From a virus, in IMG/VR virus record IMGVR_UViG_3300009030_000028, positions 1 through 20,374 of that record: a DNA stretch of 20,374 bases. One strand, 5' to 3'. The translations under genes and the position numbers were made by a program. This document shows, one piece after another, positions 16,602 to 16,701 of the stretch. How positions within the stretch are numbered: the stretch's first letter is position 1; each line of letters begins with the position of its first letter. The notes under the pieces were generated by a model that saw only the letters and a list, made by a program, of their open reading frames with translations, had not been told where the DNA came from and did not search any database.

Positions 16602-16701
16602 GCCGGGATAGCTCAATGGTAGAGCGCATGGTTCGCGGACCACGTCGGGAAACGACGTGGATGAATGCCATGAGATGCAATATCGAAACCTGCTCCCGGC
16701 A
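16602..16701 (+). ncRNA. tRNA-like RNA with extended anticodon arm
   Basis: The 5' end GCCGGGA pairs perfectly with TCCCGGC (16694-16700) as a 7-bp acceptor stem. TA then GCTC-AATGGTA-GAGC gives a textbook D arm. The next stem CATGG (16627-16631) finds its partner CCATG only at 16668-16672. In between, TTC pairs with GAA and CCACGTCG (16640-16647) with CGACGTGG (16653-16660) around GGAAA, making one long rod instead of a 7-base anticodon loop. The 3' side has TCGAAACCTGC as in a T arm, but the 5' strand GCAAT pairs at only three positions. No CCA is encoded. It is 100 bases long. Read as a tRNA with a 29-base insertion after TTCGCGG, the anticodon would be CGC (Ala). It may be a decayed tRNA, a tRNA with an insertion, or a tRNA mimic. 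Confidence 0.55.

What the first reader, a model, noticed from the sequence alone, without database searches (positions are those of the whole stretch)
16602..16701. tRNA-like RNA whose anticodon arm is a long rod
Perfect acceptor and D arms with a recognisable T-loop side show a tRNA origin, but the anticodon loop is replaced or interrupted by about 29 bases that pair into an 8-bp hairpin with a GGAAA loop, stacked on the anticodon stem. The T-stem 5' strand has lost two pairs, including the normally G-C closing pair. It lies in a promoter-XRE-RNA-terminator unit, so it is probably transcribed. A tRNA mimic or decoy against anticodon nucleases, or a tRNA carrying an unusual tiny insertion, would be new.
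Basis: partly seen in the sequence, partly recalled or inferred. Interest (0 to 1): 0.75.

Follow-up and report, generated by a model that had tools for sequence, protein, structure and literature searches.

The report
Phage tRNA-derived RNA with rod-shaped anticodon arm
A phage fragment carries a gene for an RNA that is plainly built from a transfer RNA but cannot read codons, because a small hairpin sits where the anticodon loop should be; many other phages turn out to carry tRNA genes with similarly enlarged loops.

Summary
Window 16602-16701 (+) matches Rfam tRNA over the whole model (46.9 bits, E 2.2e-7) with intact acceptor, D and anticodon stems. The anticodon loop is 36 nt and contains a perfect 8-bp hairpin; two of five T-stem pairs are lost. 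It starts 6 nt after the stop codon of an XRE gene and is followed by an intrinsic-terminator-like hairpin. As it stands it cannot decode. Its 5' half is tRNA-Thr-like, but no excision of 29 nt leaves a Thr anticodon. No relative of this RNA or its phage was found, so selection could not be tested on it.

Enlarged anticodon loops are common in viral contigs. Two groups are clean: tRNA-Gly (three contigs) and tRNA-Asn (two), with precise 24- and 32-nt hairpin inserts that covary and are absent from homologous phage tRNAs. They look like small introns. Other loops lack U33 and look non-decoding.

The window RNA fits best as a non-decoding tRNA-derived RNA (0.40). A decaying tRNA gene (0.33) and a spliced tRNA (0.15) remain open. 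An anticodon-nuclease decoy is unlikely, because no anticodon is presented.

The parts
16054..16081 (+). sigma-70-like promoter TTGACC-16-TATACT
   Evidence: 10 of 12 matches; 1 found, 0.4 expected by shuffling
16203..16595 (+). XRE/HTH_3 regulator, 130 aa with GAGGAG Shine-Dalgarno (or 84 aa from 16341)
   Evidence: HTH_3 E 6e-10; weak HipB/RstR-like matches below cut-off; start sites read from sequence
16602..16701 (+). tRNA-derived RNA, whole
   Evidence: Rfam RF00005 46.9 bits, E 2.2e-7, full model 1-71
16602..16608 (+). acceptor stem, 5' strand
   Evidence: 7 of 7 WC pairs with 16694-16700
16611..16625 (+). D arm with G18-G19
   Evidence: 4 of 4 WC pairs
16627..16631 (+). anticodon stem, 5' strand
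   Evidence: 5 of 5 WC pairs with 16668-16672
16632..16667 (+). 36-nt loop in place of the 7-nt anticodon loop (29 extra nt)
16640..16660 (+). 8-bp rod with GGAAA loop
   Evidence: pair probability 0.997 for its outermost pair; loop z -3.5, 0 of 1000 shuffles
16668..16672 (+). anticodon stem, 3' strand
16677..16693 (+). degenerate T arm, 3 of 5 pairs, loop ATCGAAA
   Evidence: T loops beginning ATCG also occur in two intact phage tRNAs, Thr and Ile
16694..16701 (+). acceptor stem, 3' strand, plus discriminator A (followed by TTA, no CCA)
16711..16771 (+). intrinsic-terminator-like hairpin (4+12 pairs) ending in TTTTT
   Evidence: fold; not in the list, which allows loops of 3-8 only

Best explanation
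A former tRNA gene, tRNA-Thr-like in its 5' half, that a phage has kept as a non-decoding RNA. It is transcribed as the 3' end of the XRE regulator mRNA. RNase P is expected to cut at the acceptor stem and so release an RNA of about 100 nt ending near the terminator. The tRNA fold then serves as a stable scaffold, and the rod in place of the anticodon loop is the part presented to whatever partner it has. Shown: tRNA ancestry, intact acceptor/D/anticodon stems, the rod, the lack of a usable anticodon, and the position between XRE stop codon and terminator-like hairpin. Inferred: transcription, RNase P processing, function and partner.
For: Full-length tRNA match. 24 of 24 Watson-Crick pairs in acceptor, D, anticodon and rod helices. 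Fold z -4.9 and loop z -3.5. No register of the loop gives an anticodon that agrees with the Thr-like 5' half: its 24 nt equal those of one phage tRNA-Thr(TGT), and of the listed blastn hits those covering positions 1-24 in an annotated tRNA (Lacusarx, RcXuper) are tRNA-Thr, while Bacillus phage hits to positions 7-29 are tRNA-Asn. It sits directly after an XRE gene and before a terminator-like hairpin. Precedent in kind: 42 of 65 distinct viral tRNA-like genes with intact anticodon stem and long loop lack U33, against 7 of 66 in cellular genomes, and some of them carry strong rods (8 of 42 at p<=0.05), e.g. L271, L319, L246, L055.
Against: No relative was found, so there is no covariation evidence. 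Two T-stem pairs, C74 and CCA are missing, which decay would also give; C74 is present in 51 of 65 viral tRNA-like genes and 684 of 738 ordinary ones. No transcript data exist. No antisense target in the fragment: the longest complementarity is 12 nt on the + and 10 nt on the - strand, typical for random 100-mers of the same window. Most non-U33 loops in other phages are not significant rods (34 of 42).
Confidence: 0.4

Rival explanations
1. Decaying tRNA gene. A small palindromic sequence entered the anticodon loop of a phage tRNA; the gene lost its use and the T arm and 3' end are drifting.
For: Two of five T-stem pairs lost, no C74, no CCA; no usable anticodon; no conserved relative.
Against: All other 24 pairs are intact. 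If two pair-breaking hits fell at random among 29 pairs, both would fall in the T stem with probability 0.025. A perfect GC-rich rod and its place before a terminator-like hairpin are not expected of drift.
Confidence: 0.33
2. tRNA with a small hairpin intron. The 29 nt are cut out by an unknown endonuclease and the halves rejoined, perhaps by a phage T4-type RNA ligase, giving a 71-nt tRNA.
For: U32-U33 are present. Other phages carry precise hairpin inserts whose removal restores canonical loops: tRNA-Gly(GCC) in L065, L073, L321, 24 nt, identical to RcXuper tRNA-Gly outside the insert at 68-70 of 74-75 positions; tRNA-Asn(GTT) in L063 and L298, 32 nt, L298 outside the insert 94.9% identical to an insert-free Acinetobacter phage tRNA-Asn. 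Hairpins covary: 3 double changes and 0 broken pairs in each comparison (L065 against L073 and L321; L063 against L298). PF09511 RNA ligase is in 9 of 15 contigs over 50 kb of the U33 group, against 1 of 13 without U33 (p 0.006).
Against: In the window no register gives an anticodon that fits the Thr-like 5' half; the only two registers with a purine at 37 read CGC (Ala), but the acceptor lacks G3-U70; register 2 reads GAA with U37. The T arm is damaged. No PF09511 in the fragment (the tool notes that no control rang). Against tRNA-rich contigs without U33 the ligase contrast is weak (9 of 15 against 4 of 17, p 0.07).
Confidence: 0.15
3. Processing or stability element: the tRNA-like fold only marks the 3' end of the XRE mRNA for RNase P or protects it, and the rod is incidental.
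For: It starts 6 nt after the XRE stop codon and precedes a terminator-like hairpin.
Against: Would not need the rod nor an intact anticodon stem.
Confidence: 0.1

Closest known systems
Ordinary phage tRNA genes (e.g. tRNA-Thr of L402, RcXuper, Lacusarx)
   Same: Acceptor, D arm, anticodon stem; the 24-nt 5' half is identical to L402 tRNA-Thr(TGT)
   Different: 36-nt loop with rod instead of the anticodon loop; damaged T stem; no C74
Archaeal tRNAs with bulge-helix-bulge introns
   Same: Insert of similar length in the anticodon loop
   Different: The cellular examples keep U33 in 59 of 66 and mostly a normal loop start; the window RNA has no consistent anticodon and no 4-bp helix flanked by 3-nt bulges in its predicted folds
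C4 antisense RNA of phages P1/P7 (RNase P-processed immunity RNA)
   Same: Small phage RNA; RNase P processing of C4 precursors is described in PMC5320573 (passages read). A works-like analogy only
   Different: No C4 match in Rfam at E<=1; no antisense target in the fragment
Phage tRNAs with anticodon-loop substitutions that evade nucleases (van den Berg 2023, PMC10264068)
   Same: Altered anticodon loops in phage tRNAs
   Different: Abstract and passages read: the main text has no occurrence of 'insertion' or 'intron'; those tRNAs are held to decode

Membership tests
Decoding tRNA | tRNA secondary structure recognised by the family model | tested here: met
   46.9 bits, gathering score 29
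Decoding tRNA | 7-nt anticodon loop with U33 and purine 37 | tested here: not met
   loop of 36 nt
Decoding tRNA | 5-bp T stem closed by G53-C61, T54 | tested here: not met
   3 of 5 pairs; U53 opposite C61; A54
tRNA with excisable insert (intron) | Removal restores a canonical loop that fits the isotype | tested here: not met
   eight registers read by hand: GAA, CAA, CGA, CGC; none is a Thr anticodon; purine 37 only with CGC, and G3-U70 is absent
tRNA with excisable insert (intron) | Insert-free homologue or covarying insert in relatives | tested here: inconclusive
   no relative with the rod found
Archaeal-type bulge-helix-bulge intron | 3-nt bulge, 4-bp helix, 3-nt bulge at the splice sites (recalled definition) | tested here: not met
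   folds show no such element
Group I intron in tRNA | Catalytic core of about 200 nt or more (recalled) | tested here: not met
   insert is 29 nt
C4 antisense RNA | Match to the Rfam family | tested here: not met
   no match at E<=1
Functional non-decoding RNA | Discrete transcript in the cell | not testable with these tools
   no RNA data

The most novel reading that the evidence does not exclude
The window RNA is one case of a widespread, undescribed remodelling of phage tRNA genes. Phages insert small hairpins of about 20-40 nt into anticodon loops: in some (Gly, Asn) as true mini-introns that are excised and rejoined by phage RNA ligases, in others as permanent replacements that turn the tRNA into a non-decoding RNA with a rod. 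The window RNA would be of the second sort, derived by loss of splicing or by retooling.
Probability: 0.25. Interest if true: 0.85.

Novelty: new variant of a known kind. Interest (0 to 1): 0.5.

Why it matters
Phage tRNA genes are usually counted as decoding aids or as replacements for tRNAs destroyed by host defences. Genes whose anticodon loop is replaced by a rod cannot be either without splicing. If they are spliced, phages of bacteria would have small protein-dependent tRNA introns and a new role for T4-type RNA ligases. If they are not, phages would use the tRNA fold as a natural scaffold for small RNAs. Both are directly testable by RNA sequencing of infected laboratory hosts.

Tried and rejected
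Relatives of the window phage: XRE and RecT gave none in viral contigs. A YqaJ alignment gave 68 distant loci (best E-value L384, 33% identity, 3e-36). Rfam on 11 of these 68 gave no RNA at all, so the RNA was not seen in them. blastn of the RNA against phages and plasmids listed only pieces of at most 35% of the query. A pattern with the window's T-loop end gave 4 stretches: two are normal tRNA-Gly with a chance downstream match, two are an unrelated cloverleaf RNA.

A Phe identity (anticodon GAA, note) was considered and dropped: the same 5' half is a tRNA-Thr in a phage, and position 37 would be U.

Antisense action inside the fragment: no excess complementarity. Defence genes beside the RNA: only weak HTH matches.

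Intron reading for all viral loops: rejected as general, since 42 of 65 lack U33. The association of RNA ligase with U33 loops is kept as suggestive only, because it weakens against tRNA-rich contigs. The U33 label is not the same as decodable: several U33 loops give no convincing anticodon (e.g. L119, L104). For the ligase counts I left out contigs under 50 kb and L298, which was not in the set of 65 (it has the ligase); L091 was dropped because it lies in the same contig as L273; L038 and L047 were not searched.

No print of this class was found in the searches (PMC open library only; listings read). Passages were read of PMC7824862, PMC5320573, PMC10865867 (outline, abstract and passages), PMC3706429 and PMC10264068 (abstract and passages).

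Full report
WHAT IS THERE. The window is a 20,374-base linear virus record, probably a fragment. It encodes a terminase, a PF12236 portal/connector, a tail fibre, a VWA-metallopeptidase-type protein with an ATPase, an XRE regulator, and YqaJ/RecE-like and RecT-like recombination proteins. The finding lies between the XRE gene and a small open frame (89 aa) upstream of the recombination genes. Rfam finds one RNA that passes its curated score in the window: tRNA, 16602-16701, all 71 model positions, 46.9 bits, E 2.2e-7. The loop is 36 nt. The fold is far stronger than shuffles (z -4.9), as is the loop alone (z -3.5, 0 of 1000). So the RNA is tRNA-derived and the rod is not chance.

CONTEXT. A promoter-like site (16054-16081) precedes an XRE gene with a good Shine-Dalgarno (16203-16595; a shorter form could start at 16341). 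The RNA begins 6 nt after the stop codon. It is followed by a 4+12-pair GC-rich hairpin and TTTTT (16711-16771); the terminator scan does not list it, as it allows loops of 3-8 nt only. This layout suggests that the RNA is the 3' end of the XRE transcript. Transcription itself is not shown.

CAN IT DECODE? Not as it stands. If 29 nt were removed, eight registers are possible (read by hand), giving the anticodons GAA (three registers), CAA, CGA and CGC (three registers). Only two of the CGC registers have a purine at 37. The 5' half is Thr-like: its 24 nt are identical to a phage tRNA-Thr(TGT) (the only exact match in viral contigs), and of the listed blastn hits in phages those covering positions 1-24 in an annotated tRNA are tRNA-Thr, while Bacillus phage hits to positions 7-29 are tRNA-Asn. 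No register gives a Thr anticodon. Ala identity would need G3-U70 (recalled), which is absent. The window RNA therefore has no self-consistent isotype.

IS IT ALONE? No relative of this RNA was found, nor close relatives of its phage; in 11 of 68 distant YqaJ relatives examined Rfam finds no RNA at all. But enlarged anticodon loops are not rare in viruses. Part of these are ordinary stems with long variable arms. Combining this with a second pattern, 65 distinct viral sequences keep a 5-bp anticodon stem around a loop of 12 nt or more; in cellular genomes 66 do, mostly archaeal by the titles shown. U33 is kept in 59 of 66 cellular loops but only 23 of 65 viral ones. Position 74 is C in 51 of 65 viral cases, so these are tRNA genes by their 3' ends too. 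Strong hairpins in the loop (p<=0.05) are found in 8 of 42 loops without U33 and 9 of 23 with U33 (the difference is not significant, p 0.14). The window rod is among the stronger ones.

TWO CLEAN CASES OF PRECISE INSERTS. L065, L073 and L321 carry tRNA-Gly(GCC) with a 24-nt hairpin directly after the anticodon. Outside the insert they match the tRNA-Gly(gcc) of Rhodobacter phage RcXuper at 68-70 of 74-75 positions; RcXuper has no insert. L063 and L298 carry tRNA-Asn(GTT) with a 32-nt hairpin; L298 outside the insert matches an insert-free Acinetobacter phage tRNA-Asn at 94.9%. The hairpins covary: 3 double changes and no broken pair in each comparison between groups (L065 against L073 and against L321; L063 against L298); L073 and L321 differ by one single-sided change. 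These inserts are maintained as structure and leave a normal anticodon if removed. They look like small introns. Of 8 virus records with U33 hairpin loops (L034, L063, L065, L073, L257, L298, L321, L326) none encodes an archaeal-type splicing endonuclease or RtcB; T4-type RNA ligase 1 is in 4 of 8 and Rnl2-type ligase in 5 of 8. Some of the 8 are short fragments. Over 50 kb, PF09511 is in 9 of 15 U33 contigs, 1 of 13 non-U33 contigs (p 0.006) and 4 of 17 tRNA-rich contigs without U33 loops (p 0.07). The last two groups share members.

VERDICT ON THE WINDOW RNA. It shares the tRNA body and the rod with this wider phenomenon, but not the features that make the Gly and Asn cases intron-like. It has lost C74 and two T-stem pairs. 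That both broken pairs lie in the T stem has probability 0.025 under random hits on 29 pairs, which speaks mildly against plain decay; T loops starting ATCG exist in two intact phage tRNAs, so the loop alone is no sign of decay. I commit to a non-decoding tRNA-derived RNA released from the XRE transcript (0.40), with decay a close second (0.33). A decoy for anticodon nucleases is not excluded but has no support, because no anticodon is offered.

COMPARISON. As a works-like analogy, the RNase P-processed C4 antisense RNA of phages P1/P7 (PMC5320573, passages) shows that phages use RNase P-processed small RNAs in immunity; the window RNA is not a C4 RNA and has no antisense target in the fragment. 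Phage tRNAs with anticodon-loop substitutions against host nucleases are described (PMC10264068, abstract and passages), with no occurrence of insertion or intron in the main text. tRNA-dependent lysogeny (PMC10865867, abstract and passages) needs a decoding tRNA. No description of hairpin inserts in phage tRNA anticodon loops was found in ten searches of an open-access library only.

Noticed in passing
L065, L073, L321 (tRNA-Gly) and L063, L298 (tRNA-Asn): Precise, covarying 24- and 32-nt hairpin inserts in phage tRNA anticodon loops, absent from homologous phage tRNAs; possible mini-introns.
   Followed up: partly
L130, L133, L144, L164, L173, L202, L204, L233 (titles read: Chryseobacterium for all but L233, whose title was not shown), L178 (Marinicella, three in tandem, 1670-2081), phage loci L056, L104, L245: A shared motif ACYYY-YCGC-hairpin-GCANAN-RRRGT-TCCT sits inside the enlarged anticodon arm of tRNA-like genes; its stem varies with pairing kept. 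Looks like an undescribed structured RNA.
   Followed up: partly
L404 5664-5767 (-), L406, and Pseudomonas phage loci L409, L411, L412, L413, plus L410: A conserved outer stem of about 20 bp (GCATCGGGGTGTGATCTG...CAGATCACACCCCGATGC in most) encloses a different inner domain from phage to phage; in L404/L406 a tRNA-like cloverleaf (z -6.9), in L413 a T-arm-like end. No Rfam match for L404.
   Followed up: partly
window, e.g. 10605-10616, 10939-10950, 11954-11965, 12575-12586, 15286-15297, 15544-15555, 15736-15747: Palindrome GACACGTGTC occurs 10 times (0.07 expected), in genes and in the region upstream of the XRE gene; perhaps operator sites.
   Followed up: no
L022, L026, L053, L066, L070, L074, L146, L201 and others: tRNA-like genes with anticodon loop of the kind YTTATAC (Ile TAT) and a long variable arm, in viral and some bacterial contigs.
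   Followed up: no
L303, L316: Several tRNA matches of 113-121 nt inside tRNA arrays (e.g. L303 4571-4691, 4702-4814, 2905-3017; L316 5278-5391, 5437-5557), so more than one enlarged tRNA per genome.
   Followed up: no
L073 7873-7972 (-): A skipping-rope RNA (RF02924) lies within a phage tRNA array that also holds an enlarged tRNA-Gly.
   Followed up: no
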